From a virus: 64,000 nucleotides of DNA. Position numbers and translations under genes: made by a program. A model generated the notes under the pieces. The model saw nothing but the letters and a program-made list of their open reading frames with translations, searched no databases and was not told the DNA's origin. The first letter of the stretch is position 1, and each line of letters starts with the position of its first letter. The stretch is from IMG/VR virus record IMGVR_UViG_3300035698_022738, positions 32,852 through 96,851 of that record, one strand, 5' to 3'. Shown here piece after piece: positions 16,677 through 64,000 of the stretch.

Positions 16677-16682
16677 GTTTGT

Positions 16683-44668: not shown

Positions 44669-46174
44669 ATGGCACCAAAAAAGCCAAAAGTTTATAGTGT
44701 GCAGCCACGGTACAAAAGAGGTGGGGTTCCCCGAGGCTGGTATGTCATTGATGCGATCACTCGTTTGGGGGAAGACTTGCCAGCCTATGGATCCGTGCAT
44801 CGGGATTCCTATCTGTCAACTCAGTGGATGAATGAGCCTCTGCTGGCAGGGGTTTTTAGTACCTGGGTGGAACGAGTTCAAACTGTCAACTGGAAAATCA
44901 CTGGGGGACGGAACACAGCCAACTACTATGCCAACTTATTGAACGAGGCGGATGGGGGGTTGGGCTGGTCGTATCATGAGGGCATGTGTGCGATTGATTA
45001 TCTGTCAACAGACAAAGGTGGTTTTGAGGAGTTGGGTCGATCCAAAGCCAGGTCAACCACAGGCCGGGTCATGGGTATTCAGCATATCGACTCGGTGCGC
45101 CTGGTCATGATCGGTGAGGTTGGACAGCGTTGGAGATATTTCCCGGAAGTTGGTCGGGGGGGTGAGCCTTTCAATATTCCGGACGCAAATATTATCCAGT
45201 TGGTAAGCTTGCCCTCTGGCAGGGAGCATTATGCCGGGAATGGTGTTTGTGCACTGTCCAGGCTGGTCGAGTCCAAGACCTTAATGTTGGGCTACTTGGT
45301 CTACTTCCGGCAAGAGATTGGCAACCTTCCGCCAGAACTGGTAGCTATCATCAATGGCCTACCACAGACTGTTGTAGAGGACAGTCTGAAAAAATACCGC
45401 ATGGAATTGAAAAAGAAAAACCTGGACACCTATGGCAGGGTGTGGTGGTTGGGTTCTGATGACGAAGCAGTTCCGGTGACGTTGGACATCAAGAGTCTGA
45501 CGGTCCCCAACAAGTCGTTTGATTATAGAGTCATGACTGAGTGGTGGGCTAAGCTGCTGGCATTGAACACTGGGGAAGATGTTGGGGAATATTGGCTCAT
45601 TCAGCACTCTGGCAGCACCAAAGCAGTTCAAAGCGTGCAGGCCATGAAGTCCAGGGGCAAGGGTACAGCCAAATATTTGCAGGAAAAAGAACGGCTCTAC
45701 AACTTTAGGGTTCTACCGTATGGTGTTGTTTTCCAGTATGACAATAAGGATGATGATCAGGATAGGGCGGTAGCTGAGATTCTGTCTCAAAAGGTATCTA
45801 CACTCTACCAGCTGGCCTCTGTGGGAGTCGAGCAACAGGATTTTGCTTACACAATCGAAGAAATCCGGAGGTTGGCGGTTGAATGGGAAATCGTGCCTTC
45901 CGAGTTTGGGGCGGAAGAGGTCCCGAGGTTGGTTGGATCGGCCTACAAACATTTGGTAGACGAAGACACTTATGTAGTGGATCGCTCCATGAAGATGTAC
46001 AAAGTCAATCCAGTTCTGAGAGGGCGCGAGGGTCGGGAGGCAGAGCATATCTACCATGCTTTCCAGGACCTGGTGTCTGGTAAGAATAGGGAAAGTGCTA
46101 TGCAGCATAAGGCAGATGGGTTGGAGGGTGGAAATGGAGTCCAAAAGGTCACAGAGAGCCAAGTCGTATCCTAA
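44669..46174 (+). CDS. Portal protein
   Basis: 501 residues, AAGGAG before ATG 44669. Position between terminase and minor head protein, size, and typical portal phrases (PLLAGVFSTWVERVQTVNWKITGG, GYLVYFRQEIGNLPPELV, LALNTGEDVGEYWLI, SGSTKAVQSVQAM) support a dodecameric portal. The C-terminal ~60 residues are charged and overlap the next gene by 41 nt. Confidence 0.85.
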   Translation: MAPKKPKVYSVQPRYKRGGVPRGWYVIDAITRLGEDLPAYGSVHRDSYLSTQWMNEPLLAGVFSTWVERVQTVNWKITGGRNTANYYANLLNEADGGLGWSYHEGMCAIDYLSTDKGGFEELGRSKARSTTGRVMGIQHIDSVRLVMIGEVGQRWRYFPEVGRGGEPFNIPDANIIQLVSLPSGREHYAGNGVCALSRLVESKTLMLGYLVYFRQEIGNLPPELVAIINGLPQTVVEDSLKKYRMELKKKNLDTYGRVWWLGSDDEAVPVTLDIKSLTVPNKSFDYRVMTEWWAKLLALNTGEDVGEYWLIQHSGSTKAVQSVQAMKSRGKGTAKYLQEKERLYNFRVLPYGVVFQYDNKDDDQDRAVAEILSQKVSTLYQLASVGVEQQDFAYTIEEIRRLAVEWEIVPSEFGAEEVPRLVGSAYKHLVDEDTYVVDRSMKMYKVNPVLRGREGREAEHIYHAFQDLVSGKNRESAMQHKADGLEGGNGVQKVTESQVVS

Positions 46175-47885
46175 TCCTGGTCATGAGGGTTTGGATGAAA
46201 AATGGGGGGGCTCGAAACCACGTAGCTCTGGGGATGAGTCCAGTTCTGCCTCTGTGGATGGAGAGGATCGTAAAGTCTCGGTAGCTGACCTGGCTGACAG
46301 GGATAGTGAGGTCAACAAGCTCGGAAGAGAAAATTGGGACGATCTGTCTGATGCAGAGAGAATGTCTCTGATGGACCCAGATGCTATCGACATGTCGATG
46401 CAAGATGAGCTTGATCGGTATCGACAGCCCTACAGCTCCCAGGTTAAATTCCAGGGGAAAAAGCTGACCTCGAAGGGCATTGAGGATATTGGGAAAAACG
46501 CAGATGCTTACATAGAATCTCTCGATGACGCCTTGACTCCAATCACTCGTGAAAAATTGAACAAGTTTGTCCACGATTTCTATCTTCCCGCTGTGGATGC
46601 CTCTGTCTCGGACGGGTCGTTGGAGTTGACAGACAAAGAGATGGATGTGATCATGCGGGGTAACATTGACAAGCTTGTCTTCCAAGAGATTGAATCAAGG
46701 AAAAGACAGATGGGTGATCATGGTATCCGACATGTTGTTGGCAATATTGAAAGATCATTCCAAATGATAGATGAGTTGGAGTCGGTGCCGTCGTTGGACC
46801 GTCTCATGGTTGCTCAGGCTATGGTGGATCATGATATCGGTTTGACAGCTGGTGTTGCGACTCAATCCTTTACAGCAACCAATTATCACCCTCAGTATTC
46901 TGAAAAATTTGTAAGGGCACAAGACTATCCAAACAGGCTTTTTCCTGGGCAAGAGGATAGATTGTACGATATGGTTTTGACTCACTCCGATCCTGACATG
47001 GATTGGGAGGGTGAGCCAGCTAGATCAGCTTTGAGGGTATCCGACAACACAGCTCTTTTTCAAGAGGATAAACTCCCAACTCTTTTTGTTGAGATTCCAG
47101 GAGCAACCACTGAGTTGTACAGGTTGCAGCTGGCAAAGCAAGCCGGGATGGAACAGGATTATTTGCCAGAGACAAAAAGAAGGTTGAAAGAGTTGGTTGG
47201 TGAGTCGGACTTTGACCCACGGATCAAAGCGGAATTGGTCTCAGCAGCTGATGAGGTGTTTTTTCTGACACCTAAATTCAATCTTGGTATGTTGGCAGGT
47301 GAGGTGTCTGAGTTTGATTATGATCCAGAAGCGGTTCGGATGGATATTTACCTTACTTCCACCCCAGAGCGTGAGCCATTGAATGGGATATTTGACATGG
47401 GTGAGCGTCAGTTCGAGAAATTTATGAAATCTTACGATTCTGAGGGGAGTCCAGATGAGGGTTTGCTGTTGCGGGAAAGGAACTCAGGGGACGCCGTGCT
47501 CAGCTTTACATACAATGAGAGCGAGGCTGGTACTTCCCAGGAGCTGAGTAACTTGAACGCCATGAGTATTCGGCCTGTTCTGTCGGCAATGGAACGTCAA
47601 CTGGGGCCGTCTCCAACGCCGGAGCGTAGGCAGGCTGTTTGGGATGAGTTTTCACCAGAGGTATCAAGACGGTTAACAGATTCAGAGATTGGGGCTATGA
47701 AGGCTCTCTATGGTGAGGGGGTTAATTTGACTGGTTTCCCGCTCACTAAGAGGGAGAGAACTTTCATGCAGTTGGAAAGCTTGAAGAGTCTGAAGATACT
47801 CGTTAATCTAATGGAAGGAAACCCAGGTCACGCCGACAATTTGCTGCGTTCCTACTTTGGGCGTAGCACAATAAGAGGTATGTGA
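46134..47885 (+). CDS. Virion-module HD-domain phosphohydrolase-like protein with N-terminal GHEG...WGGS tag
   Basis: 583 residues from ATG 46134 (TTGGAGGG upstream). Residues ~10-27 read SYPNPGHEGLDEKWGGSKP, a Gly/His/Trp motif comparable to tags on other head-module proteins here. An HD-type centre: H200 (GIRHVVG), H233-D234 (MVDHDIG) and D304 (SDNTALF), the H...HD...D pattern of metal-dependent phosphohydrolases. The remainder is acidic and unrecognised. Being between portal and minor head genes it may be packaged in the head. Substrate unknown. Confidence 0.8.
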   Translation: MESKRSQRAKSYPNPGHEGLDEKWGGSKPRSSGDESSSASVDGEDRKVSVADLADRDSEVNKLGRENWDDLSDAERMSLMDPDAIDMSMQDELDRYRQPYSSQVKFQGKKLTSKGIEDIGKNADAYIESLDDALTPITREKLNKFVHDFYLPAVDASVSDGSLELTDKEMDVIMRGNIDKLVFQEIESRKRQMGDHGIRHVVGNIERSFQMIDELESVPSLDRLMVAQAMVDHDIGLTAGVATQSFTATNYHPQYSEKFVRAQDYPNRLFPGQEDRLYDMVLTHSDPDMDWEGEPARSALRVSDNTALFQEDKLPTLFVEIPGATTELYRLQLAKQAGMEQDYLPETKRRLKELVGESDFDPRIKAELVSAADEVFFLTPKFNLGMLAGEVSEFDYDPEAVRMDIYLTSTPEREPLNGIFDMGERQFEKFMKSYDSEGSPDEGLLLRERNSGDAVLSFTYNESEAGTSQELSNLNAMSIRPVLSAMERQLGPSPTPERRQAVWDEFSPEVSRRLTDSEIGAMKALYGEGVNLTGFPLTKRERTFMQLESLKSLKILVNLMEGNPGHADNLLRSYFGRSTIRGM

Positions 47886-47916
47886 ACGTTATATTGAATG
47901 AAGGGAGTCAAGTGAG

Positions 47917-48117
47917 ATGGCTGAGAGAAAAAGGATCGTGTTGGATGCCAGTCCGGAAGAGGCAGACTGGATCAAGACCATAGTTGGGCCGGATGGAAAG
48001 ACTGCAAGGGAGCGCGATTTGGAGGCGCATGATGAGGCGTCTCGGATGCATGCTGAAGAGGTAGGTCTCTCCGAGTTGGCTGAAGTTCTGGAGGAGTCCG
48101 ATGAGCCATCTGATTGA
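47917..48117 (+). CDS. Small acidic protein
   Basis: 66 residues, GAAGGGAG before ATG 47917. ASPEEADWIKTIVGPDGKTARERDLEAHDEAS; helical and acidic. Overlaps the tagged gene at 48101. CGTTATATT (47887-47895) lies upstream. Possible scaffold or chaperone; not recognised. Confidence 0.65.
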   Translation: MAERKRIVLDASPEEADWIKTIVGPDGKTARERDLEAHDEASRMHAEEVGLSELAEVLEESDEPSD

Positions 48118-48640
48118 TTTGATTGAGAGCGCAAAGGTTCTGGTCAAGGAAAAACATCTCCCTGGTCAGCATAATCAAGATGATCATGGAAACTGGGCGG
48201 ATGGGGGTGAGAGTGGGATGCTTGGCCCTCGGGGTTCTAAAGCAGAGGCCCAAAAGATCAGACACCTGTTAGATTTGTTGGAAAAGGAGAAGGGGTTCTC
48301 AATTGATGTTGTTGGTTGGAAGCCCCCGGTCTCTGGGAGCATGGTCTCGATTTACCCAGATCGAGAGAAGCAGATTGTTGACCTTGGAAAGTCCAGTTTT
48401 GAAGAGCAGCAGGACTTGATTGGTGATTACGTTGCCGATAACTCTGATTTGTTGGAATTGCCCGATCACTATTTGGGTGGGTGGTTGGAAAAGGGAGTTG
48501 TATTTTTGGATGTGTCGGTCAATATCGCCAGCCAAGAGAAGGCAATGAAATTGGGGATTGAGCATAACCAGTATGCAATCTTTGATGTTAAATCCTGTAC
48601 TGTAATCAAAACCGGGTATGAGGGTGCCAGAGAGGAATGA
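48101..48640 (+). CDS. Head-module protein with HLPGQH...HGNWA tag
   Basis: 179 residues. K18-HLPGQHNQDDHGNWA tag, a 15-residue Gly linker, then a domain with IYPDREKQIVDLGKSS, VFLDVSVNIASQEKAMKLG and NQYAIFDVKSCTVIKTG, a C-terminal pattern I recall from phage hypothetical proteins (..V.LD.S..V....A...G...NQ.AIFD). The same tag recurs three times in the 62517 polyprotein. Function unknown. Confidence 0.8.
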   Translation: MSHLIDLIESAKVLVKEKHLPGQHNQDDHGNWADGGESGMLGPRGSKAEAQKIRHLLDLLEKEKGFSIDVVGWKPPVSGSMVSIYPDREKQIVDLGKSSFEEQQDLIGDYVADNSDLLELPDHYLGGWLEKGVVFLDVSVNIASQEKAMKLGIEHNQYAIFDVKSCTVIKTGYEGAREE

Positions 48641-48738
48641 GTGTTTTTGATGCAGTTGTTTGTGTTGTCGCTCTGATCTCAGCAGTTGCGTTGGTATATG
48701 CAATATACCAGGTGCTCTACCCCCGCAAAATAAAGTAG
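48637..48738 (+). CDS. 33-residue single-span membrane protein
   Basis: MSVFDAVVCVVALISAVALV then YAIYQVLYPRKIK: one membrane segment with a basic C-terminus. AGAGG upstream; ATGA overlap with the previous gene. Function unknown. Confidence 0.6.
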   Translation: MSVFDAVVCVVALISAVALVYAIYQVLYPRKIK

Positions 48739-48761
48739 TTTGTGAAAAGGAGAACGTTAGA

Positions 48762-48950
48762 ATGGCAAAGAAAAAGTTGGTCTATTCCAGGGGAAAGGTT
48801 AAGTCCTTGGAAGAGTTCAAAGAAATGGTGATCGGAACGGTGTCAGCTCTGACAGGTGCCCCTAAACGGGATGCTCTGACACCAGAAGCCTGGGAAGAGA
48901 AGTATACCAGGTACGTTAAGAACGCTCAGAAGGCCCCTAAAGACCTGTAA
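48762..48950 (+). CDS. Small basic protein
   Basis: 62 residues from ATG 48762 (AAAAGGAG upstream). MAKKKLVYSRGKVKSLEEF, then WEEKYTRYVKNAQKAPKDL. Basic and helical; could bind nucleic acid or a head protein. Not recognised. Confidence 0.65.
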   Translation: MAKKKLVYSRGKVKSLEEFKEMVIGTVSALTGAPKRDALTPEAWEEKYTRYVKNAQKAPKDL

Positions 48951-49008
48951 GATGGATGTAGGTCATTTGATACCTAATTGGCTGTAAAACGCCGTAGCGA
49001 GGCCCTGG

Positions 49009-49953
49009 ATGTGTTCTGATTGCTCAAACGATATCTCAAAAACATTTGCCAGCCTATTGCCGTGGTATGCTGTTCTGGTTTTCAAGGAGTCGAAAGAGGA
49101 GCTTGAGAAAAAGGCCCTTGATGACCTGCCAGAGTATATCACGGCAATTGCAGAGGGGACGCTTGGCTATGAGCAAGCTATTCGTGTTGCATGGGACAAG
49201 CTGAAAGCTCTTCCAAGTGATAAGGCAGCTCGTGAGTTCATAGAGACCCTCAAGCGAGAGTCCAAGCAGCGGTATGAAGAGGTTTTGAAGGCTGTTTTGG
49301 AGCTTGATGAGCTCTATCCTGTGCAGATAGAATTCCTGGAAAAGTATCTGAGAGAGCATTATGAGTATCTGGAAGATGCCTTGTTGCCAGATATCATGAC
49401 AGCCATGTCAATAGGCACCCCAGTTGACGTGAAATCTAAGCTGGGTTCTATGGACTACCGGGTGATTGTGATGTATGCCGGGGCTTTGTGGGGTTTTGGC
49501 ATGTTGTCTACTATAGTGTTTGATGGTATCCAGTTGCGTGATGCCCTGTCCTTATTCATGTTTTCTGGCCCCAATGATGAGCGGACCTGCACTGGACCTC
49601 GGGGATGTGCCCAGCATGTTGGTCAGGTCTATACGGTTGCCCAGATATTGCTCTATGATATTATTCCTGGGCATATGAAGTGCGGGGGGAATTGCAGGCA
49701 CATGCTATTTCCGATTTTACTTTGGCCTGATTTCAAGGGCAAAACCAAAGTGGCATGTCTTGAGAGAGGATGTATCCGCTATCGGGGTGCAGTTGACAAT
49801 CCGTTTGGTAAAGGTCTTGATTATGTTTGTGATGCCTATCCTTTTGGAATTCCCTCAGTGATCGTATCAGGAAAGGATAAGCATATGGTATCTCGGGGGG
49901 ATGATATGGGGATTACATATCTCGGGCCGGAGCTGTGGAGTCCGGGGACCTAG
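49009..49953 (+). CDS. Minor head protein, Mu gpF-like head morphogenesis type
   Basis: 314 residues. ATG 49009 is the only start after an in-frame stop; the ribosome binding site is weak. A helical N-terminal two-thirds is followed by DERTCTGPRGCAQHVGQVYTV and PGHMKCGGNCRHMLFPI, the Cys/His-rich C-terminal signature of gpF-type minor capsid proteins. An extra Cys-rich tail (ACLERGCIRYRG) follows. Attaches at the portal vertex in related phages. Confidence 0.8.
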   Translation: MCSDCSNDISKTFASLLPWYAVLVFKESKEELEKKALDDLPEYITAIAEGTLGYEQAIRVAWDKLKALPSDKAAREFIETLKRESKQRYEEVLKAVLELDELYPVQIEFLEKYLREHYEYLEDALLPDIMTAMSIGTPVDVKSKLGSMDYRVIVMYAGALWGFGMLSTIVFDGIQLRDALSLFMFSGPNDERTCTGPRGCAQHVGQVYTVAQILLYDIIPGHMKCGGNCRHMLFPILLWPDFKGKTKVACLERGCIRYRGAVDNPFGKGLDYVCDAYPFGIPSVIVSGKDKHMVSRGDDMGITYLGPELWSPGT

Positions 49954-49962
49954 GGAGGTAGG

Positions 49963-50451
49963 ATGAGATTTTTGGCTTATGCTCGTTACGTTTTTATTCA
50001 CAAGTGGTACGTGTTTTGGGCCTGTTTGAAGCTTGGAGTTCCTATTTGGCTGGCAATTTTTCATGACGCATCAAAGTTCCTGCCCAGGGAGTTTATTCCT
50101 TACGCATATCAGTTCTATGACTCGAAGGGTGCTCCTAAAGATGTAAGAGATTCGAGTGGTGCCTATGACCCGAATTCTCAGTCGGATTCGTTCAAAAAAG
50201 CTTGGATATCTCATCAAAAAAATTGTCATCATTGGCAGGCATGGGTATCTATTGGGAATTTCGGGACCCTGGAGCCCTCCCCATTTCCGGAGAGATATGT
50301 CCGTGAGATGGTGGCAGACTGGATAGGGGCTGGGAAAGCTCGTGGGCAATCTGACCCGTCCGGTTGGTTTGAAAAGAACAGAAGTAGCATGGTGATCCAT
50401 CCGGAAACGGAAAAAAGAATTGATGAGATACTTGAGGGACTCGGTGAGTAG
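49963..50451 (+). CDS. DUF5662-like conserved phage protein
   Basis: 162 residues, GGGAGGTAGG before ATG 49963. Pattern HKWYVFWAC, AIFHDASKF.PREFIPYA..FY, F..AW..HQ..CHHWQAW, VREMVADWIGAGKARG and NRSSMVIHPET matches a widespread phage family (DUF5662, from memory). Conserved His/Asp residues suggest a metal site, perhaps an HD-like hydrolase, but no function is established. Confidence 0.8.
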   Translation: MRFLAYARYVFIHKWYVFWACLKLGVPIWLAIFHDASKFLPREFIPYAYQFYDSKGAPKDVRDSSGAYDPNSQSDSFKKAWISHQKNCHHWQAWVSIGNFGTLEPSPFPERYVREMVADWIGAGKARGQSDPSGWFEKNRSSMVIHPETEKRIDEILEGLGE

Positions 50452-50478
50452 AATCTTTGAGTAAAAGAAGAGGCAGAT

Positions 50479-50820
50479 ATGCAAGAGCACGAGAACGTCC
50501 AGTATGGACGGGTGAGAATTTTAGCATTGGGTCAGATGGTGCAGAACCTTTTGGGAGACGATCCCAATACTGTTATCCAGTTGACATACCAGTTGGATGA
50601 TAGTGGGAATCAAGGCTATCCTCGGTTTATTGAAGTTACTTGCTCAACACCGCTTGCTGTCAGTATGGAAAAGATAAGGCAGGCAGTGGAACAGACCATG
50701 GAGGGGAACTGGTTATTTTTGGGGTCAGTTCCGAGAGAGGGAACGGCTGCTGAGGGGGTATTCATCACGGCTACATTCCAACGGCTTGTGACTATAGTTG
50801 GGAATACCCAACATATTTGA
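50479..50820 (+). CDS. Small unknown protein
   Basis: 113 residues, AAGAGGCAGAT before ATG 50479. Beta-rich: RFIEVTCSTPLAVSMEKIRQ, GVFITATFQRLVTIVG. Possibly a small structural protein; not recognised. Confidence 0.65.
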   Translation: MQEHENVQYGRVRILALGQMVQNLLGDDPNTVIQLTYQLDDSGNQGYPRFIEVTCSTPLAVSMEKIRQAVEQTMEGNWLFLGSVPREGTAAEGVFITATFQRLVTIVGNTQHI

Positions 50821-50845
50821 TACATTTTTCGTTCTATCCTATAGG
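50817..50845 (+). promoter_or_regulatory. Sigma-70-type promoter before secreted protein gene
   Basis: TTGATA, 17-nt spacer, TATAGG, within the end of the previous gene and overlapping the ribosome binding site TAGGAGAG. If the -10 is real, the transcript would start very close to ATG 50856, so it is only a candidate. Confidence 0.35.
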
Positions 50846-50855
50846 AGAGTTTTAC

Positions 50856-51137
50856 ATGAAATTGCTAGGAGTTGTCGTAATTCTGCTGATTGCTATTTTC
50901 TTGCTGGTGAGTCCGACCTTTGCCCAGAATACAGATCGCCCTCCGCAAATGCAGGGGTTTTGGGTGTGTCAGGATACTTGGTGTCTTGCTTTGCAGTGGA
51001 CAACTTCATGCCCACCAAGCGGCTGTCCTGTCGTTTATCCCTTTGGTTCCATAGTTTACGATTGGGAGCCAGTGATTGTGAAGGCACCCGCATGGATACA
51101 CTATTCCCTTCCACCTGGGCCGCATCGAGCGAGTTGA
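50856..51137 (+). CDS. Small secreted Cys-pair protein
   Basis: 93 residues from ATG 50856. Signal peptide ending SPTFAQ, then GFWVCQDTWCLALQ, SCPPSGCPVVYP and a Pro/Trp-rich tail. Four Cys could form two disulphides. Shares G-(Y/F)-W-V-C-x(4)-C with the protein at 15269. The frame at 50798-51187 is a shadow. Probably envelope-acting; function unknown. Confidence 0.7.
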   Translation: MKLLGVVVILLIAIFLLVSPTFAQNTDRPPQMQGFWVCQDTWCLALQWTTSCPPSGCPVVYPFGSIVYDWEPVIVKAPAWIHYSLPPGPHRAS

Positions 51138-51190
51138 TAAGAATACTGATTGAGTCAAAATGGAACAAAAAAGAGAGGAGCCAGTAGGCT

Positions 51191-51751
51191 ATGGGAAAGA
51201 CGTTTACAAGCAGGGGAAGTGATCTCAGACAGGCGTTGGAAGCTGTTCGAGAGCAAGAGCAAAAATCTGTGGGTGACCGGGAGCTAATTTCTCGTGACGT
51301 TGGAGAATTGGTATGGGAGTATGTGCGAGAGCGGCTCTGGCACCTGAGATGGTCGTCCAGTGTCCAAAAGTACGATGAGAGGATTTCATTTACAATCTCA
51401 GAATCATCGAATAGTTCTAGCAACCTGGCCCAGAGAAGGTCAATTATGGCTCGCATGTTTGATCTGAGCGGAGAGTGTACTCTCGGTCCTGGTGTGCTTT
51501 TCCTGTGGAACGGGCGTGATTTCGAGGTCGTTGCTCAGTTCACTGATGATGCCTCTTCCACCCTGGCAACGTTAGTGAGTGAGGGGATGATACTGGACAG
51601 GTTTCAATTGGGTTTGTGCACGATGGCTCTGAGTAAGAAAGCTGATGGGCATAGCAAATTGCTCCATAGAGTCGATGAGAAAATCATCTACTTGAATGGT
51701 ATCCAAATGTTTCAGGCAAAGATTATAGACTCTGGTAAGAGCCCTGAGTAA
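51191..51751 (+). CDS. Unknown protein
   Basis: 186 residues, GAGAGGAG about 15 nt before ATG 51191. Helical N-terminus, beta C-terminal half (GPGVLFLWNGRDFEVVAQFT). Not recognised. Confidence 0.65.
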   Translation: MGKTFTSRGSDLRQALEAVREQEQKSVGDRELISRDVGELVWEYVRERLWHLRWSSSVQKYDERISFTISESSNSSSNLAQRRSIMARMFDLSGECTLGPGVLFLWNGRDFEVVAQFTDDASSTLATLVSEGMILDRFQLGLCTMALSKKADGHSKLLHRVDEKIIYLNGIQMFQAKIIDSGKSPE

Positions 51752-51768
51752 GGGAAAGGAAAAGGAAA

Positions 51769-52329
51769 ATGACTGAATTGATAAGTGAGATCAAGCTGTT
51801 GGATATTGAGGATGAGGTCAAGCTGGCTGGGTCACTTTTGGTTGTGGCTCAAGATATTTTGAAGGGTGTGCAAACTCTTTCCATAGGCATAACTCGGGTC
51901 CTGGTAGGCTCAGATGACCTTGCTCGTGAGCTGGACGGGGAAGCTGCCCACAAGAAGATTTCGAGTCTGATGGAGTCGGCAAAGAAGTCTGGTAGTATTC
52001 TTAATTTCATTGAGGGTCTACCTGCTGATGACCTCAAAAACTTCGGAGACATGAGTGCCAGGGCAATCAATGCCATTATGCTCGATGAGCAAGTCATGGG
52101 AACCAAGCTGGCTATTCAGAGCATCATTGAAGCTGAGCGAGCTTTGAAGGCTGCTTGCTCCGAGCTGAAAAAGTCTCAGAGTCTTTTGGAGGCAGTGGCA
52201 GAGGTTCCAGGAGAGTTGGAAGTGACAGCGGAGTCCATGAGCTCCGTGCTAGATGAGGTTTCTGAGATACTCTGCAAGAATTGTGATAGAAACGGAGAGC
52301 GCGTTGGAGAATCTTATGGAGAGTGCTGA
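51769..52329 (+). CDS. Unknown helical protein
   Basis: 186 residues, AAGGAAAAGGAAA before ATG 51769. All helical with coiled-coil potential (ERALKAACSELKKSQSLLEAV) and two C-terminal Cys. One GAAGCTGA motif encodes IEAE near residue 121. Overlaps the nucleotidyltransferase gene by 14 nt. Could be an internal head or assembly protein. Confidence 0.65.
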   Translation: MTELISEIKLLDIEDEVKLAGSLLVVAQDILKGVQTLSIGITRVLVGSDDLARELDGEAAHKKISSLMESAKKSGSILNFIEGLPADDLKNFGDMSARAINAIMLDEQVMGTKLAIQSIIEAERALKAACSELKKSQSLLEAVAEVPGELEVTAESMSSVLDEVSEILCKNCDRNGERVGESYGEC

Positions 52330-52969
52330 GGTCAAGCCCCAGGTTTTCATTTTAGCTGCGGGTGCTGGTGAACGTTGGCGAAGATCTGTCAGTGGCGGCA
52401 ATCCAAAGCAGACAATGAAGCTGGATGGTACTACCTCCATCATATCCAGGATCGAGGGGCAGTGCATCAGTCTCGGGTACACTCCGATTGTTGTAACCAA
52501 TTCAGACCAAATACGGGAATGCACGGGGCATAGTATGCAAGTGTCTCCACAGAATGATAAGTTCACTGTGGAGACACTTCTTTCATGTGAGTCCTGGTTT
52601 ATACATAGAAATGTCGTGTTGCTGGGGGACGTTGTTTATTCTCCGCAAGCTATCCGTAAGATATTGACCAGTCAGAGCAGCCTAAAATTCTTCGGAAGCA
52701 AGGATGAGATATTTGGACTCATATTTGAATATAGTCCCGAGCTCATGGACAAGTTGAAAGCTGTCTGGCAGGTTGCGGAGGCTGGTAAATGCTCTGGAAT
52801 CCTATGGTGTCTGTACAGGTTTTTAGAGGGCTTTGGCTACCAGGACTATAAATTTGGATCACTCTATGAGTTCATAGAGGACGGGACAGATGACATTGAT
52901 GAGTGGGTGGATTTCAATCGGATGCGGCATGCCTATCAATCCTTACGTGTGAAGTGGGGTGAGGTATGA
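52316..52969 (+). CDS. Nucleotidyltransferase (NTP-transferase/MobA-like fold)
   Basis: 217 residues from ATG 52316 (TTGGAGA upstream). FILAAGAGERWRRS...GNPKQTMKLDG is the signature G-x-G-x-R and downstream Lys of sugar-phosphate or molybdopterin nucleotidyltransferases; LLGDVVYS supplies the metal-binding Asp. Would activate a sugar or small molecule with NTP. Presence among head genes suggests virion or DNA glycan decoration, but no glycosyltransferase is seen. Confidence 0.82.
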   Translation: MESAEVKPQVFILAAGAGERWRRSVSGGNPKQTMKLDGTTSIISRIEGQCISLGYTPIVVTNSDQIRECTGHSMQVSPQNDKFTVETLLSCESWFIHRNVVLLGDVVYSPQAIRKILTSQSSLKFFGSKDEIFGLIFEYSPELMDKLKAVWQVAEAGKCSGILWCLYRFLEGFGYQDYKFGSLYEFIEDGTDDIDEWVDFNRMRHAYQSLRVKWGEV

Positions 52970-53178: not shown

Positions 53179-53229
53179 GGCTGGTAGAGTTGGGGATTTA
53201 GAGGTACAATAACAGAGGAGGTACAAAAC

Positions 53230-53622: not shown

Positions 53623-53638
53623 TTCATGGAGGTGATCT

Positions 53639-55311: not shown

Positions 55312-55367
55312 AGCCAAGTCAATTGACAGTGATTGAAGTAGACGGCCCGGTAGGGCAAGGAGACAGT

Positions 55368-56069: not shown

Positions 56070-56117
56070 CTTAGAATCAAAGCCTCGTAGGGTCAGGGGA
56101 GTACCCCAGCTCATGCA

Positions 56118-56152
56118 GTATTTATATGTAGGTGTGACACGCATATAAATAC
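56118..56152 (+). other. Inverted repeat in the 56070-56216 spacer
   Basis: GTATTTATATG / CATATAAATAC, perfect 11-bp arms with a 13-nt loop, no T-run. AGTATTTAT(A/T)T recurs at about 41307. Could be an operator or mRNA hairpin before the prohead gene. Confidence 0.55.
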
Positions 56153-56216
56153 ATGTTATGTCAACAATGAAGCTGCTCCAAGGAACCGATAGTGGAGGGG
56201 GTACACTAAGGAACCT

Positions 56217-59200
56217 ATGAGGCTTTCAATTCTTTCATGCGGTTCAATCGTTGTAGATGGATCAAATGGCAACAGCAGGTTGCTATTTGGAGTCCCCGAT
56301 GGTGTCATTCATTCCCTCAAAGAGAGTGGCATGGATCACCCGACCATGGCGTTCACTACTTCCATGAGAGCCCCAGGTGTCGGGTCGATGGAACAAGCTA
56401 TCCCCATTTTTCGAGAGAGCCCTTACAGCAACGGAGAGCTCAGTGCATCCCTCATAAGACACAAACATGGCAGCGACTATTGTATTGAAGCTGACGGCGC
56501 AAAGCTCCTTTTCTCCGAGAGGGGCGATGTCTCAGTTTTGGATACCGCGAATTATGACCTGGCAATCATCAAAAACAAACATAGAGCTGACGCCCTGGGT
56601 GAGCACGTTATCACATGGCCCTGGCCGGATAGCGAGGTATCAATCGTGGATCACGACGTTCATTTTAGTTCCACGGAAAAGGTTTGGGGAAGGCTATCAG
56701 AGGTCCCCAGCAATTTGAAAAAAGTAGACGGCAAACCCTTGACTCTTTCCCAGGCCAATTGGCTGGCAAGTGCAGCGGATAGCATTGAAGCTGACGGAGA
56801 TGCCAAAGAGCCGTGGGCAATCGCCATGTCTCAATTCAAAAAAACCTTTGAGAAAACAGAGGATGGTTGGCAGAGAACCGAGTGCCTAACCGGACAGAGA
56901 GATAAGGAAACCGTCGGAACTGAAGCTGACTTGCAAGAGACAAACGTAGAGAGTGAAGGAACCTACGAGACAGAGCAATTTGGAAAAGTCTCAGTTGACA
57001 ACGTGCGCCGGGTAGAGATGGGAACCAAGCGCGGTATGACTGAAGCTAAGATTTTCTCAAGAGACGGTAGAACAACCACGACTCTTGTTGGAGGCGAAGC
57101 TGAGAATTTCCTGGACTGGTGGAACCAAAACAAACCAGAAGGACCCCAGAGTTCAAGAACCAATACCCTGCCGCCAGCCCCTACCGTAGTTTCGTCTCAA
57201 CCAAGCCCGTCTCAAAAGGGAGTCAGGCCAAAACCCCTAAGAAAAGCGGTTGCTGATTCTCAGGGAGCCCAGCAACTTGAAACAAAGCCAGAGAGTGAAG
57301 TTGGTGTTGAAGATGAAACAACGCCGCAAGAGGAGCCAGAGCAAATGAAAAAGGATCCAAAAGACAAATCAGAAGAGGCCCTGGCAGAAATGGCAGACGA
57401 AGAGGAACCTGATTTCAAAAAGGATTCCAAACCAGATCAATCAAATGAAGCTGACACAAAGCCCTCAGACGAAGAGAAGCCTGTAAATGACACAGAAGAA
57501 AATCAAGATCAATCAGTGGATAACACCGAAGAGAAGCCAACAGAATCAAATGAAGCTGATGAACCTCAGCCAAAGAAGTCAGCTAAGCCTACTGAGAGGC
57601 CCTCAGACGAAGAGAAGCCTAATCCTGAAGGGAATTCCTCTGAAGAGGATCAAGAGAATGAAGCTGACAGAGAGCCTAATCCCAAAGAGGATAAGAACAG
57701 CAATCAATCAGGCAAACCAAAAGTCCCGGCTTATCTTACAGAGGGAGAGACACCTGAAGCGCAACCACTACCAAAAGATACAGATGAGGACCCAGATCAG
57801 TCAAAGGGAAAGAAGTCCCCTGAGAATGAAGCTGACACAAAGGCAGATAGTGAGCCAGAGGATGAAGACATAGCAGATAGAGATCAAGAGAAAAAGGATC
57901 AATCAGAAGAAGAGGATTCAAGTAAGAAAAAACCCACAAAGAAAAAAGCAAAGGAACTACAGGCTAAGGAAAGACTAGAGAGAGCCTGGGTAGACAGAGA
58001 CTTTGAAAGCATTGAAGCTGAGAGAGTAGCAGAGAAGGCAGTAAGGGAAGTACAGGAAACAGTAGGGGAAAGCATTGGAGCTGAGAACGTAGGGGAAGTA
58101 CAGAGAGTAGGGAAGGCAGAAGGAGTCACGGAGCAGGGAACAGAGAGAACAGAAGAGAACACGGAGCATGGAACAGAGAGAGTAGGGAAAACAGAAGGAA
58201 AAGAAGAGAAAACAGAAGGAATCACGGAGCATGTAAAAATCAAAACAGAAGAGAACACGGAGCATGTAAAAATCAAAACAGAAGAATCCCGCCCCGCAGG
58301 GCGTGTGCAAAAATTCACAAACGCCAATCCGGAACACATCGCTCAAAAAGAGGGGCTCCAGGCTACAATGGATCGCTTTGCAGCCACCCTCCGGCAACAG
58401 TTCTGGGCCTCCGACATTGAAGCTGACACCGTTGACTGCTCTGGCACTTACAGGCCCTGGCTGGTAGAGTTGGAGCCTGGTCTGGCCTACGTGGAATTGA
58501 ATGGGGGCTACTTTGCGGTCCCCTACACAATAGAGGGATCAAAGAGAGAAGATATCAAGTTTGCTCCCAGAGAGCTTTGGTTGGATGCCGCCAGAACGTG
58601 GGGCATTGAAGCTGATGAGGCCCAGATCGACGCACTTTTGACATTCTACGCGCCCACAGGTGAGATACCTAAAATGGGCGCAGTGATGCTTGGAAAAGGT
58701 GAAATAACCAAAAACAAGGCAGGCCTGACTGCTACAGACTACCTGGCAGTTGAAGACCCAGACAAGCCTGCCACCTGGAGGCTGCCTGTGGCCGTTAAAC
58801 ACGGGCAACCAAGCCCTAGACTAATGAAGGCGGCTGCGGACGCTCTAGCAGCCCCAGGGGGCTTCAGGGGCAAATCCTATGAAGGTCCTAAAGCAGAGGG
58901 AGCACGAAAGAAGCTCCTGGCAATCTACAACAAGCTTGAGTTGGACGCGCCGGGGAGCCTGGCCCAGTTCAAGAGTATTTGGGAGAACGCTCCCAGTTAT
59001 GAAGACTGGCAGGCAAGCAAAAAGGGCTTTTCAGACATTGAAGCTCCCAGTTATCTTGAATGGGGAGCTGAGCATGGGGACCTCATGGCCCTGGCATTCT
59101 ACCCAGACCTCATGGACGTGAGTCGCACGCTTGAAGAAAAAACGGTAAAAGAATGGACAGAAGAAGGCCCCGAGAGACGTTTGGGAGACGTGCTAACCTC

Positions 59201-60557
59201 AAGTATCCACAAGGCGTTTACCACTGAAGCTGACAACCTATACGGAGAGGGCTTTATGAATGAAGAGGAGAGGATCGCCCTCAGTTCCGCCATAGGCGAT
59301 ATGTTAGGGCTATTTAGGGAAAAGGCAGACAAAAAAGTGCTAGAGAGGCCGCTCATGACCACGACCAAGATTCCATTGAAGTTGAAAGAATATTGCCCAC
59401 AGGCCCCAGATGAAATAGAGGGTATTTGGACTTCAGTTTGGAAAGAAGACGGTAAGTGGAAATGGGCAGCGATTACAGCTGTTTCCATGTGGGATCGCCA
59501 GGGTGAGTTTTTGACCCACAAAGCGATTGACTGGGCTTTGGCTATGTCAAAAGTAATTGGCCCTGGCCCATTGCGATATAAGCATATTCCCGGCCTGGAC
59601 GGAGGAGATTGTGACCGTCAAATTAGAGTCGGGGATTATCTGTTTGAAGCTGGGACATTCCGTGACAGCCCCATAGGACTGGCTATGAGGACTAAAATGC
59701 AGAGTGACCCTACATGGCAAATATCGCCCGGACTGGCCTTCAGAGCTAGTGACCTACAGAGAGGGGTGTATCAGAGAGCCTCGATATTTGAAAGGTCGAT
59801 TACACAATCCCCAGCTATTCCGGCGACAGCCATCCTATCTATCACGCAAGGAAATGAGGACATTGAAATGGCCGTTAAGGAGTTGGATCAGAACGCTATT
59901 CAAGCGGTTGCAAAAGAGCTTGGCCTGGACGTAGGCTACGTGGAAGAGCTCCACAAACGCAGCCTGGCAGGCACGGGTGATCCTCTAGGATTGTCTGAAT
60001 TCAAGGAGTTTGTGGCCTATAAGGCAGGTAAGAAGGCAGACCCGCCAGCAGCCATACCCCCTGAAGAAGAGGACATGGAAGAGGACGAAGATGAAGAGGA
60101 TACCAAAAAGAAGCCCTCCAAGGAGAGTGAATTCTCCAAGGTAGTAGGCTCCATGAAGAGCGTGGCCCCGAAGCTCACACGCGCACAACGTGAGCAGTTG
60201 GCTAACGTGCTTGACCCACGGCATACAGCTACCAAGCACGAAGAGGACGGAGACCTGGCAGAAATCAAGCAAGTGCTCAAGCAGCAGGCAGCTGTGATGG
60301 GCAGCCTGGTATCAGCCGTATCCGACCTCCAAGAGGTAGCAGGGACGCAGGCAGGCCTACCACGCAGCCAGGCCGCACAATTCATGGTAGCCGCCAAAGA
60401 GGACGCACCGGCAACGCAAGCAACCGACCAAGAAATCCTCGCAAAGCTGGATCAAATCCAGCAGGCCGTAAAGGCCGTCGAGGCTAATCCCCTGGCAGCA
60501 GGGGGTAACGTGTACGAATTGTTTACCAGCGACAAGCTGAACCAGCGTGGGGCGTAG
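56217..60557 (+). CDS. Giant prohead protease/scaffold fusion protein with repeated Glu-Ala-Asp motif
   Basis: 1446 residues. Parts: an unassigned N-terminal domain (~1-200); a long acidic low-complexity region (~350-690, runs of E/D/K/P/S); a region with DYLAVEDPDKPATWRLPV and GGFRGKSYEGPKA (~840-900) and RLGDVLTSSIHKAF..ADNLYGEGF..EERIALSSAIGD (~985-1030), both familiar from phage prohead proteins; an XkdF/prohead-protease-like region DRQGEFLTHKAIDWA..LRYKHIPGLDGGD..SITQSPAIPATAILS (~1085-1215); and a coiled-coil scaffold-like C-terminus. (I/N/T)EAD recurs, always encoded GAAGCTGA, perhaps as maturation cleavage sites. Located just before the major capsid gene. Confidence 0.8.
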   Translation: MRLSILSCGSIVVDGSNGNSRLLFGVPDGVIHSLKESGMDHPTMAFTTSMRAPGVGSMEQAIPIFRESPYSNGELSASLIRHKHGSDYCIEADGAKLLFSERGDVSVLDTANYDLAIIKNKHRADALGEHVITWPWPDSEVSIVDHDVHFSSTEKVWGRLSEVPSNLKKVDGKPLTLSQANWLASAADSIEADGDAKEPWAIAMSQFKKTFEKTEDGWQRTECLTGQRDKETVGTEADLQETNVESEGTYETEQFGKVSVDNVRRVEMGTKRGMTEAKIFSRDGRTTTTLVGGEAENFLDWWNQNKPEGPQSSRTNTLPPAPTVVSSQPSPSQKGVRPKPLRKAVADSQGAQQLETKPESEVGVEDETTPQEEPEQMKKDPKDKSEEALAEMADEEEPDFKKDSKPDQSNEADTKPSDEEKPVNDTEENQDQSVDNTEEKPTESNEADEPQPKKSAKPTERPSDEEKPNPEGNSSEEDQENEADREPNPKEDKNSNQSGKPKVPAYLTEGETPEAQPLPKDTDEDPDQSKGKKSPENEADTKADSEPEDEDIADRDQEKKDQSEEEDSSKKKPTKKKAKELQAKERLERAWVDRDFESIEAERVAEKAVREVQETVGESIGAENVGEVQRVGKAEGVTEQGTERTEENTEHGTERVGKTEGKEEKTEGITEHVKIKTEENTEHVKIKTEESRPAGRVQKFTNANPEHIAQKEGLQATMDRFAATLRQQFWASDIEADTVDCSGTYRPWLVELEPGLAYVELNGGYFAVPYTIEGSKREDIKFAPRELWLDAARTWGIEADEAQIDALLTFYAPTGEIPKMGAVMLGKGEITKNKAGLTATDYLAVEDPDKPATWRLPVAVKHGQPSPRLMKAAADALAAPGGFRGKSYEGPKAEGARKKLLAIYNKLELDAPGSLAQFKSIWENAPSYEDWQASKKGFSDIEAPSYLEWGAEHGDLMALAFYPDLMDVSRTLEEKTVKEWTEEGPERRLGDVLTSSIHKAFTTEADNLYGEGFMNEEERIALSSAIGDMLGLFREKADKKVLERPLMTTTKIPLKLKEYCPQAPDEIEGIWTSVWKEDGKWKWAAITAVSMWDRQGEFLTHKAIDWALAMSKVIGPGPLRYKHIPGLDGGDCDRQIRVGDYLFEAGTFRDSPIGLAMRTKMQSDPTWQISPGLAFRASDLQRGVYQRASIFERSITQSPAIPATAILSITQGNEDIEMAVKELDQNAIQAVAKELGLDVGYVEELHKRSLAGTGDPLGLSEFKEFVAYKAGKKADPPAAIPPEEEDMEEDEDEEDTKKKPSKESEFSKVVGSMKSVAPKLTRAQREQLANVLDPRHTATKHEEDGDLAEIKQVLKQQAAVMGSLVSAVSDLQEVAGTQAGLPRSQAAQFMVAAKEDAPATQATDQEILAKLDQIQQAVKAVEANPLAAGGNVYELFTSDKLNQRGA
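58223..58288 (+). repeat. 33-nt tandem repeat within the acidic region
   Basis: CACGGAGCATGTAAAAATCA... is repeated with a 33-nt period (58223 and 58256), giving two 11-residue units TEHVKIKTEEN / TEHVKIKTEES. Related TEH/TERTEE units precede it. Suggests recent expansion of the low-complexity region. Confidence 0.8.
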
Positions 60558-60873
60558 GGGGTAGAACGTGCAGGGTATACAGGTAAGGGTGAGCGATAGC
60601 AGGGGTAAGGGGGTCACAGCTGGGCGTAAGGCAGGATACCAGCTAAGCCACCACCCAGGCCCAAATCGCAAATCTCGTGGAAAAAGTGGACCCCCTTACC
60701 TACCGCACGGATTTCTCTCAAATTGCGAGAGGGATGAAAATGTGTAAGAGACTTTACATAACACACGGTTCTCTCCCACATTGCGAGAGGGGCAGTAATG
60801 AGCAAGGCACATAACACACATCCCCCCCACGCAAGCAACGGTAAACTTAGCATATAACGCAACGAGGTGAAAG
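60558..60873 (+). other. Structured leader before the major capsid gene, with tandem hairpin repeats
   Basis: No gene in 316 nt. GGTAAGGGGGTC (60604-60615) pairs with GACCCCCTTACC (60689-60700) around AGCTGG/CCAGCT. Two similar hairpins follow, CTCTC-7 nt-GAGAG (60715-60731) and CTCTC-9 nt-GAGAG (60771-60789), each followed by ACATAACACAC (60756, 60809), i.e. an imperfect ~55-nt tandem repeat. GAGGTGAAAG precedes the ATG. Likely controls capsid mRNA stability or translation. Confidence 0.65.
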
Positions 60874-62403
60874 ATGCCTGGACAGGGTTTTAACAGTAAT
60901 CCGATGGTAGACAGTTCGTTCATTCAGTTCATGAAACAGTTCATTGCTGAGTCAGAAGGCAGTGATCCGTTTGCGACTACCATCCCCAACGATCCGGCTC
61001 GGACCATGACCTGGACTGAGTACCAGAAATTGCGAGACCTGGGTCGCCTGAAAGAAGTCAGAATCAAAGAATCGGCCTTGACCCCCACGGGCAATACACT
61101 CTACGGGACAGGTGGACTCTTCGGCCTTTGTGGTCCTGATGACATAATCGGCCTGGTCATGCAGGATGACCCGCTGGTACCGTGGATTGGCTTTGAGCCT
61201 GATACGGCCCAGGAGAAGTTCGTCAAGATGTGGACCTACATGGATGTCTCAGGGACAGCGGCTGGCTCAATTGGCACCACTGTCTACGGGGATGCCTGTG
61301 ATGATCCTCCAACTTCTGAGAAGGGTGTTTGTGAAGTGTACCAGGGCGACTTTGGTACCTTGCGTGCCTGCGGTGAGGCAGTGAAGGTTGCTGACTTGGC
61401 TTTGCGGAAATGCGACAAACAACCGACTTACACCGTGCCGCTCGAAGGCGTCGGCAAAGTCCGGATTGACAACGATCTCGATCTGGAAACAATTGCAGCC
61501 GCCCAGGTAGTCAAGCACGAAGTCAGTCGTGAGTTGATCACAGGCGACAAGAACACCACCGGCCAGTTCGACGGCCTGACCAATCTGGTCAAGAGTGGCT
61601 GGGCTTCCATCAATGGAGATCGCTGCTACGGCATGGACTCCGTTATTCAGGATTGGGAGAACGACACTCTGACTGGCGCGGTCAACGGCCACGGCTCGAT
61701 CATCGGCAAGGTCAGAGACATCTGGCGACGTATCAAATGGCGGATTCAACAGACTGGCATGGGGCTTCCGAGTGAGGGTGATGTTGTTCTTATGATGCCC
61801 TCGTGGATGGCCTGGCAGTTCTTGGATGAGTGGGCGTGGTGGACAATCCGCACAGGAGCTCAGTACAATGAGGTCTTCCGTGATAACTACGCAATGCGCG
61901 AATTCCGAGAAAAGCATGCCAATGGACGCTTTGGTGGTGGATACATTACCATCGACGGGTTCAACATCCATATCATGCCGCATGACTGGATGGCAGTTGA
62001 CCAGACTGCTCCCTACTTCTGCTCTGACATCTACCTTTTGGTAAGAGGATTTGGTGGAAGACGAGTGATGCAGGGTCAGTTCGTTCCAGCAGATGTCGGT
62101 TCAAGTGCTGTAGCAGATGTGGCTGGTTACAGGTACTTCAATGTCGAGAGTATGCAGAGTGGTCGTGCATTGCGCTGGACAAAGTTTGACAATGCCTGTG
62201 TCAGTCCTTGTTTGCTGATCCGACCTCGTTTGTTCATGGAATGTCCATGGGCTCAGGGAAAAATCGAGAACGTGTGTGTAAGCACCCAGTTCGATCCTCA
62301 AACTCTTGATCCTCAGTCGGACTACTTCATCGAGCAGAATCCAGTAGTCTCGACACACCATACTCAATACTGGTACGAAGAGGGTTCTGGCTGGTTCCAT
62401 TGA
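60874..62403 (+). CDS. Major capsid protein
   Basis: 509 residues. Position directly after the prohead protease/scaffold fusion, own structured leader and own terminator are typical of the most abundant head protein. Features such as PLVPWIGFEPDTAQEKFVKMWTY, RELITGDKNTTGQFDGL, VVLMMPSWMAWQFLDEWAWW and YNEVFRDNYAMREFREKHANG suit an HK97-type capsid fold. Nine or more Cys is unusual for a capsid protein. Choice of codons appears smoother than in neighbours (impression only). Confidence 0.85.
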   Translation: MPGQGFNSNPMVDSSFIQFMKQFIAESEGSDPFATTIPNDPARTMTWTEYQKLRDLGRLKEVRIKESALTPTGNTLYGTGGLFGLCGPDDIIGLVMQDDPLVPWIGFEPDTAQEKFVKMWTYMDVSGTAAGSIGTTVYGDACDDPPTSEKGVCEVYQGDFGTLRACGEAVKVADLALRKCDKQPTYTVPLEGVGKVRIDNDLDLETIAAAQVVKHEVSRELITGDKNTTGQFDGLTNLVKSGWASINGDRCYGMDSVIQDWENDTLTGAVNGHGSIIGKVRDIWRRIKWRIQQTGMGLPSEGDVVLMMPSWMAWQFLDEWAWWTIRTGAQYNEVFRDNYAMREFREKHANGRFGGGYITIDGFNIHIMPHDWMAVDQTAPYFCSDIYLLVRGFGGRRVMQGQFVPADVGSSAVADVAGYRYFNVESMQSGRALRWTKFDNACVSPCLLIRPRLFMECPWAQGKIENVCVSTQFDPQTLDPQSDYFIEQNPVVSTHHTQYWYEEGSGWFH

Positions 62404-62426
62404 GTTAGCTGAAGTATCCAGCTAAC
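62404..62426 (+). other. Hairpin directly after the major capsid gene
   Basis: GTTAGCTG / CAGCTAAC, perfect 8-bp stem with 7-nt loop, starting at the capsid stop codon and preceding the terminator. Possibly protects the 3' end of the capsid mRNA. Confidence 0.6.
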
Positions 62427-62437
62427 CACCGCTCAAA

Positions 62438-62474
62438 GAGGGGGATGGGGAGTAAATCCCCTCCCCCTTTTCTT
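62438..62474 (+). terminator. Rho-independent terminator after the major capsid gene
   Basis: GGGGGATGGGGA / TCCCCTCCCCC stem with a small internal mismatch and 5-nt loop, followed by TTTTCTT. Confidence 0.88.
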
Positions 62475-62516
62475 ACAGATTTTAGGGGTATTCTCTGAGT
62501 TTTGACGGGGTTTTCT

Positions 62517-64000
62517 ATGATTGCTACTACTTTACATAAGAGTTCTGCGCTAAAACACCTGCCTGGTCAGCACGAACAGATTTCACACGGGAATTGGGCG
62601 GAGGGAAGTGCGAGTAAATACATCACAAACGCAGATTCAATGGATGACGCCCTCCGTCAAAAGGATGTATTGTGGAATCCAAACCCAGATGGACCGGGAG
62701 TGTATATAAATCCTCCCTCGATTGAATCCTTGCTCAACAAACCAATGGAAAGAGGTGTATTATCGAGCAAAGGAAAGACAGTCAAGGACTACTTGAGAGA
62801 TTTCCTGCCGTTGAAGATCATCTATGATCCAGTCACTAATTCAATAATTGCTCCAACCTCCGGTGAGCAGACCACTCATTATGACGTTGCTGCGGGTGTA
62901 GTTGGACACACCCCAGGACGTGTGCTTGATGTAGAGGACAATGAGACGTATGCAGCAATAGTCGGTCTTGTGTCTGAGTTGGAAGACAGGTCTGTGAGAT
63001 TGGTCCTGACAGGGAACTCAGCTGGAACTCCTGATTTCATCCAAGTCAACATTGAGTCAGCTGGAGCTGTGGGCGACAAGGATAAGGCCCTCAAGAATAT
63101 CTATGAGGCACTGGACAAGATGTCAGAGTTGGGTCTTCCAAATGACCTGGAAGTTGAAATAGAGGATAGGTCTGGAGATACAATCCAGACTTCCATCAAA
63201 CATCTCCCAGGCCAGCATGAGCAAGAATCTCATGGAAACTGGGCCTCTGGAACAATAGAGCACCCCTCCTCAGAGCTGCCAATTCAGTCTGAAGTGAGTG
63301 ATGCCGCCAGAAAAGCTTTGACAACCGTTGCTGACAACATCCGAGACAAGGAATGGGAAGAGTTCTACTCTATTGATCCTGAGACAGGGCGCAATCGGTA
63401 CAATGCTATCGGAACAAGGCTCAGCTGTAACATTGGGCAGGACCTTCTATCATTTGAAGGCACCCTTGCGATTCACAACCACCCGCTGGGCAGCTACACG
63501 TTTTCAGCTGATGACCTCTTGGTGTTTGCAAAAGCGGGAGTAGCCGAAGGAATCGTCGTAGGCCGGGACTACTTTGGGAATGAGGTTTTTGCCAGCATCG
63601 CGCCCAGTGATGGTGATATAGCATCGTGGCCTGACCCGTATCGGCTTATGGAGAAGTATCAAGACCTCAATCATTCTATTCATTCTGAGCTTGAAAGAGA
63701 GTTGAAAGGAAAGGGGTACTCTTTCCCCGAGATCAGGGGTGCTGTTGCAGACGAATCAGCAAGACAGGTGGCCGACTATTTTGGTCTGAGTTACGTGTCA
63801 CATGGATTTCCAGATTTGGATGCCATGAGAAGTAGGGGTCCGGCCTCCAACGAAGGACAAGAATACTTTGATAAGATGGCAGAGTCCAGAGATGCGTACC
63901 TTGCCCGAAGACCAGAAATCACAGCTGAGCTGCAAGAGGCCCGTCAAGCACTATTACAAAACAAATACAGCGTTATCAAACATCTTCCAGGCCAGCATGA
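62517..64000 (+). CDS. Polyprotein-like virion protein with three HLPGQH...HGNWA tags and a JAB/MPN-like domain, 3' end outside the window
   Basis: Open from ATG 62517 to the window end (494 residues visible). K13-HLPGQHEQISHGNWA, K228-HLPGQHEQESHGNWA and K488-HLPGQHE (cut off) divide it into modules of ~215 and ~260 residues. Module 2 contains IHNHPLGSYTFSADD (H320, H322, D332), the H-x-H-P ... S-x-x-D arrangement of JAB/MPN metalloproteases and RadC-like proteins. Module 1 is unrecognised. Ribosome binding site is weak (GACGGGG). The repeated tag suggests targeting or proteolytic separation of modules. Confidence 0.85.
   Translation, partial: MIATTLHKSSALKHLPGQHEQISHGNWAEGSASKYITNADSMDDALRQKDVLWNPNPDGPGVYINPPSIESLLNKPMERGVLSSKGKTVKDYLRDFLPLKIIYDPVTNSIIAPTSGEQTTHYDVAAGVVGHTPGRVLDVEDNETYAAIVGLVSELEDRSVRLVLTGNSAGTPDFIQVNIESAGAVGDKDKALKNIYEALDKMSELGLPNDLEVEIEDRSGDTIQTSIKHLPGQHEQESHGNWASGTIEHPSSELPIQSEVSDAARKALTTVADNIRDKEWEEFYSIDPETGRNRYNAIGTRLSCNIGQDLLSFEGTLAIHNHPLGSYTFSADDLLVFAKAGVAEGIVVGRDYFGNEVFASIAPSDGDIASWPDPYRLMEKYQDLNHSIHSELERELKGKGYSFPEIRGAVADESARQVADYFGLSYVSHGFPDLDAMRSRGPASNEGQEYFDKMAESRDAYLARRPEITAELQEARQALLQNKYSVIKHLPGQH

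What the first reader, a model, noticed from the sequence alone, without database searches (positions are those of the whole stretch)
46134..64000. Recurring HLPGQH-x-Q-xx-HGNWA peptide tag on head-module proteins, repeated between domains of one polyprotein
The motif appears at residues 18-33 of 48101-48640 and at residues 13, 228 and 488 of the ORF from 62517, where it separates a module of unknown fold from a JAB/MPN-like module. A looser Gly/His/Trp form (NPGHEGLDEKWGGS) starts the HD-domain protein at 46134. The tagged proteins are otherwise unrelated and all lie in the head module. One shared address label with interchangeable cargo suggests a system for loading effector domains into the capsid, or cleavage sites for the prohead protease. 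I recall similar motifs in other phage head proteins but know of no assigned function. Function is inference.
Basis: partly seen in the sequence, partly recalled or inferred. Interest (0 to 1): 0.85.

Follow-up and report, generated by a model that had tools for sequence, protein, structure and literature searches.

The report
Shared address tag on phage effectors
Many environmental phages carry strings of enzyme and toxin-like domains next to their head genes, each domain preceded by the same flexible 16-residue tag, which most likely marks them as cargo to be loaded into the virus head and delivered to the bacterium; the tag is real and appears undescribed, but what it does is still inferred.

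Summary
The virus record behind the window (96,851 bp) carries 13 copies of KHLPGQH[DEN]QxxH[GE][NS]WA in five genes. Seven lie in one polyprotein of about 2023 aa that runs across the record ends; the rest are on four smaller proteins. Copies are about 84% identical while their flanks are near random, and synonymous codons are close to free, so selection acts on the peptide. AlphaFold2 leaves the tags disordered on either side of a folded module.

IMG/VR holds 111 stretches with the tag; 26 records searched carry 1-19 copies each. In 18 of 18 with both markers, the listed tags sit between the MuF head protein and the XkdF prohead protease. Cargo includes ADP-ribosyltransferase, zeta-toxin, GNAT-like and ParB-like domains, the same families being N-terminal in one phage and internal in another. 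A second tag (KYSxDQxRDDHGR[FW]) precedes homologous cargo. A relative lacks all tagged genes but keeps the head genes, so the tagged set is accessory.

Best reading: a modular head-loading label on ejected effectors, perhaps also cut by a protease. The untagged HD protein does not fit. Function is inference. New variant of a known kind (T4/P1 capsid targeting sequences; polyvalent and MuF effectors).

The parts
42307..43791 (+). terminase large subunit (context)
   Evidence: phrog_9, E 5.5e-32
44669..46174 (+). portal-like protein (context), by position and by eye; about 40% identical to the homologue in relative G027
   Evidence: no PHROG, NCBIfam or PDB match
46134..47885 (+). HD-domain-like protein (by eye), no tag; lies in a segment absent from relative G027
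48101..48640 (+). tagged protein pE, 179 aa; cargo of the phrog_17808 type, found with the tag in other phages
48152..48199 (+). tag 1 in window: KHLPGQHNQDDHGNWA
49009..49953 (+). MuF-like head morphogenesis protein (C-terminal pattern read by eye; no Pfam match)
56217..60557 (+). 1446-aa protease/scaffold-like protein, no tag; residues 1056-1446 conserved in G027; assignment by position and eye
60874..62403 (+). major-capsid-like protein (by position and eye), no tag; 61% identical in G027
62502..64000 (+). first 499 aa of tagged polyprotein pA (about 2023 aa; continues in record bases 1-4587)
   Evidence: synteny
62553..62600 (+). tag 2: KHLPGQHEQISHGNWA
62601..63197 (+). module A, copy 1 of 5 in this genome; folded model, no clear structural match
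63198..63245 (+). tag 3: KHLPGQHEQESHGNWA
63246..63977 (+). JAB/MPN-like module (HNHP..S..D pattern by eye; no Pfam match)
63978..64000 (+). tag 4, cut by the window end: KHLPGQH..., completed at record base 1

Best explanation
The 16-residue peptide is an exposed linear label on accessory effector proteins of tailed phages, and most likely a head-loading (capsid-targeting) signal. Each unit is a short leader, the tag, a flexible linker and one cargo domain; units occur as single genes or fused head to tail into polyproteins. A component of the immature head (scaffold, protease, portal or MuF protein) would bind the tag, bring the cargo into the prohead, and the cargo would leave with the DNA and act on the host. 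Shown: the tag's repetition, selection on the peptide, interchangeable cargo, linkage to head genes, absence of the tagged genes from a relative. Predicted: disorder of the tag. Inferred: packaging, the receptor, ejection, and whether the tag is also cut.
For: Within genomes tags are 77-88% identical and flanks about 3-13% (one exception, G018, with a 38% 3' flank), and codon choice is close to expectation in the largest set (G001 0.49 vs 0.46; G000 0.50 vs 0.39). N-terminal and internal tags have the same profile; of positions not fixed by the search, K1 is 97% and H2 99%. AlphaFold2: module A is folded, with both flanking tags below pLDDT 50; the tag of the L025 protein is also of low confidence. 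In 18 of 18 records with both markers the listed tags lie between MuF and XkdF. Cargo families recur N-terminal and internal, and with both tag types: 223 cross-pairs. Pfam above cut-off: ADPrib_exo_Tox, Zeta_toxin, DRAT (pB); GNAT weakly. Relative G027 has portal-MuF and capsid-glycosyltransferase adjacent, without the tagged genes. Precedents: the N-terminal 30 residues of P1 DarB suffice to direct a foreign protein to the head (PMC9024508); T4 internal proteins and Alt carry a capsid targeting sequence (PMC7411985), and ipI-III start alike.
Against: No virion proteomics. One tag per domain in a polyprotein is redundant for a pure address. Two Tudor-like proteins carry the tag after their domain. 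No receptor identified. In this phage the tagged genes lie mostly after the capsid gene, not between MuF and a protease.
Confidence: 0.5

Rival explanations
1. The tag is a processing site: the prohead protease (or a cargo metallopeptidase) cuts at each tag, removing leaders and separating the polyprotein's domains inside the head so that each can pass the tail.
For: Tags stand at the domain junctions of polyproteins; arrays end next to the XkdF protease gene; in L025 and G016 a tag lies in the protease ORF itself. T4 capsid targeting sequences are both address and cleaved.
Against: The conserved stretch is 16 residues, far longer than the cleavage motif quoted for SPN3US (AXE); no tag in scaffold, capsid, portal or MuF proteins of the fully read genomes, whereas all eight SPN3US propeptides share one motif; tags of the second type at the very start of an ORF would release almost nothing unless the tag itself is removed.
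Confidence: 0.27
2. The tag binds something else common to all cargo, for example DNA, a chaperone, a metal ion or the tail channel, and acts at ejection rather than at loading.
For: Three conserved histidines, Gln and Trp suit a binding peptide; each domain has its own copy, as a per-domain function would need.
Against: The second tag type keeps only one of the histidines yet precedes homologous cargo, so metal binding through the three histidines is unlikely to be essential.
Confidence: 0.13
3. The tag is an evolutionary linker or DNA-level exchange site with no peptide function.
For: Cargo is shuffled between tags across phages.
Against: Synonymous codons are near free while the peptide is kept, so DNA homology is not what is conserved; neutral linkers would diverge like the flanks.
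Confidence: 0.05

Closest known systems
Capsid targeting sequences of T4 internal proteins and Alt
   Same: A short shared N-terminal leader on otherwise unrelated head-packaged, ejected proteins, one of them an ADP-ribosyltransferase (PMC7411985; for ipI-III).
   Different: T4 leaders are N-terminal propeptides of about 10-20 residues with no sequence likeness to the tag; here the tag recurs inside polyproteins, up to 19 per genome.
P1 DarB N-terminal packaging signal
   Same: An N-terminal stretch that directs a very large effector to the head (PMC9024508).
   Different: None of DarA, DarB, DdrA, DdrB, Ulx or Hdf carries the tag.
Phage polyvalent proteins (Iyer et al. 2017, PMC5512222)
   Same: Several effector domains in one head-linked polypeptide, ART domains among them.
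   Different: No shared short tag between domains came up in the passages read; here one tag type precedes most domains.
MuF polymorphic toxins (PMC5576092)
   Same: Effector domains encoded at the MuF position of head operons.
   Different: Those effectors are fused to MuF; these are mostly separate tagged genes downstream of MuF (L032 is a MuF fusion).
PHROG 2859
   Same: Its 740-column profile covers the architecture N-domain, tag, ParB-like, tag, RelA/SpoT-like domain and matches these proteins.
   Different: Unknown function; the tag is not set apart as a unit.

Membership tests
T4-type capsid targeting sequence | N-terminal position on packaged proteins | tested here: inconclusive
   First tag within 60 residues in 141 of 233 proteins; many tags are internal
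T4-type capsid targeting sequence | Sequence likeness to T4 IP or P1 Dar leaders | tested here: not met
   Tag profile does not match P1 DarA, DarB, DdrA, DdrB, Ulx, Hdf or T4 ipI-III
T4-type capsid targeting sequence | Sufficient to package a reporter | not testable with these tools
   needs experiment
Prohead-protease cleavage site | Same motif in scaffold, capsid or other protease substrates | tested here: not met
   No profile hit in scaffold, capsid, portal or MuF ORFs of the fully read genomes
Prohead-protease cleavage site | Observed cleavage at the tag | not testable with these tools
   no virion proteomics
Phage polyvalent proteins | Multiple distinct effector domains in one polypeptide | tested here: met
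   pA: module A x4, JAB-like, ART and another; G003 GNAT-like plus ART
Phage polyvalent proteins | Linkage to head genes | tested here: met
MuF polymorphic toxins | Effector fused to a MuF domain | tested here: inconclusive
   Met in L032/G021 (MuF and tag in one 1571-aa frame) but most tagged genes are separate
Single conserved globular domain containing the tag | Tag ordered within the fold | tested here: not met
   Tags at low confidence beside a folded module; also in L025

The most novel reading that the evidence does not exclude
A general cargo-delivery code in phage heads: one short peptide, or a small set of interchangeable peptides, read by a dedicated prohead receptor, lets phages load and separately release a dozen or more swappable effectors, with polyproteins cut tag by tag.
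Probability: 0.3. Interest if true: 0.92.

Novelty: new variant of a known kind. Interest (0 to 1): 0.78.

Why it matters
How phages select which proteins to inject with their DNA is known only for a few (T4, P1, SPN3US). A short, recognisable label would allow injected effectors to be found in metagenomes by one pattern, including domains with no known homologue such as module A, and would give a portable signal for loading chosen proteins into phage heads in laboratory systems. It makes the open question of cargo selection directly testable.

Tried and rejected
Tag as part of a fold: disfavoured by predicted disorder and by unrelated cargo. Recent DNA copying or gene conversion: rejected for the larger sets by codon use; the three G018 tags do look recently copied. 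Tag in cellular genomes: six matches, chance-like where readable. Tag in isolated phages and plasmids: no near-exact match. By eye, portals and other head-region proteins of isolates carry [FW][DNE]E.[KD]HPR...G[KRQ]F (Orisa01 between portal and ART; FP_Brigit; PhiXhv; H. pametensis prophage; Boopy gp78), and Predator gp14 and Nocardia P3.1 have FNPRQPRD..GRW, but neither profile scores these significantly, so kinship is not claimed. Fold search of module A: no match with E below 0.001. The L025 model was meant to show whether the tag docks in the XkdF site, but the protease part was of low confidence. A search for more module A relatives returned only two loci, apparently through the tag. Literal-sequence paper search: none.

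Full report
What is there. The window is bases 32852-96851 of a 96,851-bp virus record, and the whole record has 13 copies in five proteins: pE (window 48101-48640), pA (from window 62502), and pB, pC and pD at record 4587-6872, 7590-8453 and 9727-11397. The record's ends overlap by 14 bases inside one tag, and the frame continues, giving pA about 2023 aa with seven tags. Fourteen bases alone is weak evidence for closure, but relative G027 has the same gene order across that point: capsid gene, then the glycosyltransferase-like gene that in our record starts at base 8470. The pA length remains an inference.

Anatomy. pA reads tag-A-tag-JAB-tag-A-tag-ART-tag-A-tag-A-tag-X; pB tag-A-tag-ART; pC tag-JAB; pD two tags with two domains, the second with a GNAT-like YAW...GF pattern by eye. 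Module A copies are about 30% identical in pairwise BLAST. The ARTs match Pfam DRAT, above cut-off for pB only. JAB is by motif only.

Selection on the peptide. Tags in the larger sets are 82-84% identical, flanks 7-13%, and identical residues share codons hardly more often than codon usage predicts in the largest set (G001 0.49 vs 0.46). G000 (0.50 vs 0.39) is somewhat above expectation, and G018 (0.77 vs 0.41, three tags, similar 3' flanks) looks like recent duplication. Most invariant positions were fixed by the search pattern (G5, Q6, H7, Q9, H12, G13, W15); K1 (97%) and H2 (99%) were not. N-terminal and internal tags have the same profile, with a hydrophobic preference at -2 and a Gly at +18.

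Linear motif. In an AlphaFold2 model of tag-A-tag (mean pLDDT 76, pTM 0.77) the module is folded and both tags are below 50. The alignment had only five rows, so this is support and not proof.

Distribution. 111 stretches of IMG/VR match, against 6 in the collection of 84,980 bacterial and archaeal species genomes, where the three that could be read were chance matches. Twenty-six records carry 1-19 copies. MuF was found in 24 and XkdF in 20 of them; several records are fragments. In all 18 records with both families over the cut-off, the tags listed lie between them (17 by coordinates and G001 across its ends). Those coordinates were typed, whose tag list was cut, so tags not listed there were not checked. 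One tag each in G009 and G010, on a Tudor-like protein, lies just past the protease.

Cargo. 363 tag-cargo segments from 237 proteins form about 20 recurrent families; most occur both N-terminal and internal (single-linkage clusters, so large ones may be chains of domains). Pfam confirms ADP-ribosyltransferase and zeta-toxin domains; GNAT is below cut-off; ParB-like domains match PHROGs. RelA/SpoT-like and metallopeptidase assignments are by eye.

Second tag. K[YF][SND]xDQxRDDHGR[FW] occurs in 78 stretches, and one ORF (L014) has both kinds. Homologous cargo follows either tag (223 cross-pairs, for example L022 and L168 at 43% over 180 aa; the second-tag pattern used there was looser). In several ORFs this tag begins within the first few residues (L157, L167, L183, L184, if the starts are right), where there is nothing upstream to separate.

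Accessory nature. G027 is 61% identical in the capsid protein and has portal and MuF-like genes adjacent, with no HD gene and no pE between; capsid and glycosyltransferase are adjacent, without pA-pC; pD's place is also empty. No tag was found in its record, although the record may be incomplete.

Mechanism. Head linkage, effector-like cargo, a free linear label and dispensability together fit proteins packaged for ejection. T4 and P1 show that short N-terminal peptides can direct packaging. Address versus cleavage is not settled: absence of the tag from scaffold and capsid genes and the extreme N-terminal cases favour address; the junction positions favour processing; both may be true, as in T4.

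Novelty. No literal hit in the paper library, and the polyvalent, NAD-ADPr and MuF papers searched for motifs, linkers or tags showed no such tag in the passages returned. Subscription papers and preprints were not searchable, so 'undescribed' means not found here.

Noticed in passing
26357-28945: ORF reading as a uracil-DNA-glycosylase-like domain fused to a family A DNA polymerase (by eye).
   Followed up: no
38430-39980: ORF reading as a DNA methyltransferase fused to a 5'-3' exonuclease-like domain (by eye).
   Followed up: no
12234-12776, 32312-33070, 33874-34881: Several separate DNA methyltransferase-like genes in one phage (by eye).
   Followed up: no
G000 record 8470-17670 (L009): Sugar-pathway-like genes (glycosyltransferases, epimerase, aminotransferase) just after the capsid and tagged genes, conserved in G027.
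   Followed up: partly
L134:9168-9665 (G003 29168-29665): Dps-like gene between the XkdF protease and scaffold genes of a tag-array phage (by eye).
   Followed up: no
L134:8402-9178: PHROG families labelled RNA ligase (14859) and DNA methyltransferase (1530) match an XkdF protease strongly, so those labels look wrong or come from fusions.
   Followed up: no
L226 2270-4381 (Pseudomonas phage Orisa01): Annotated hypothetical protein reads as a portal with a C-terminal ART joined through DFDENKHPRSDDGKFGSNG.
   Followed up: partly
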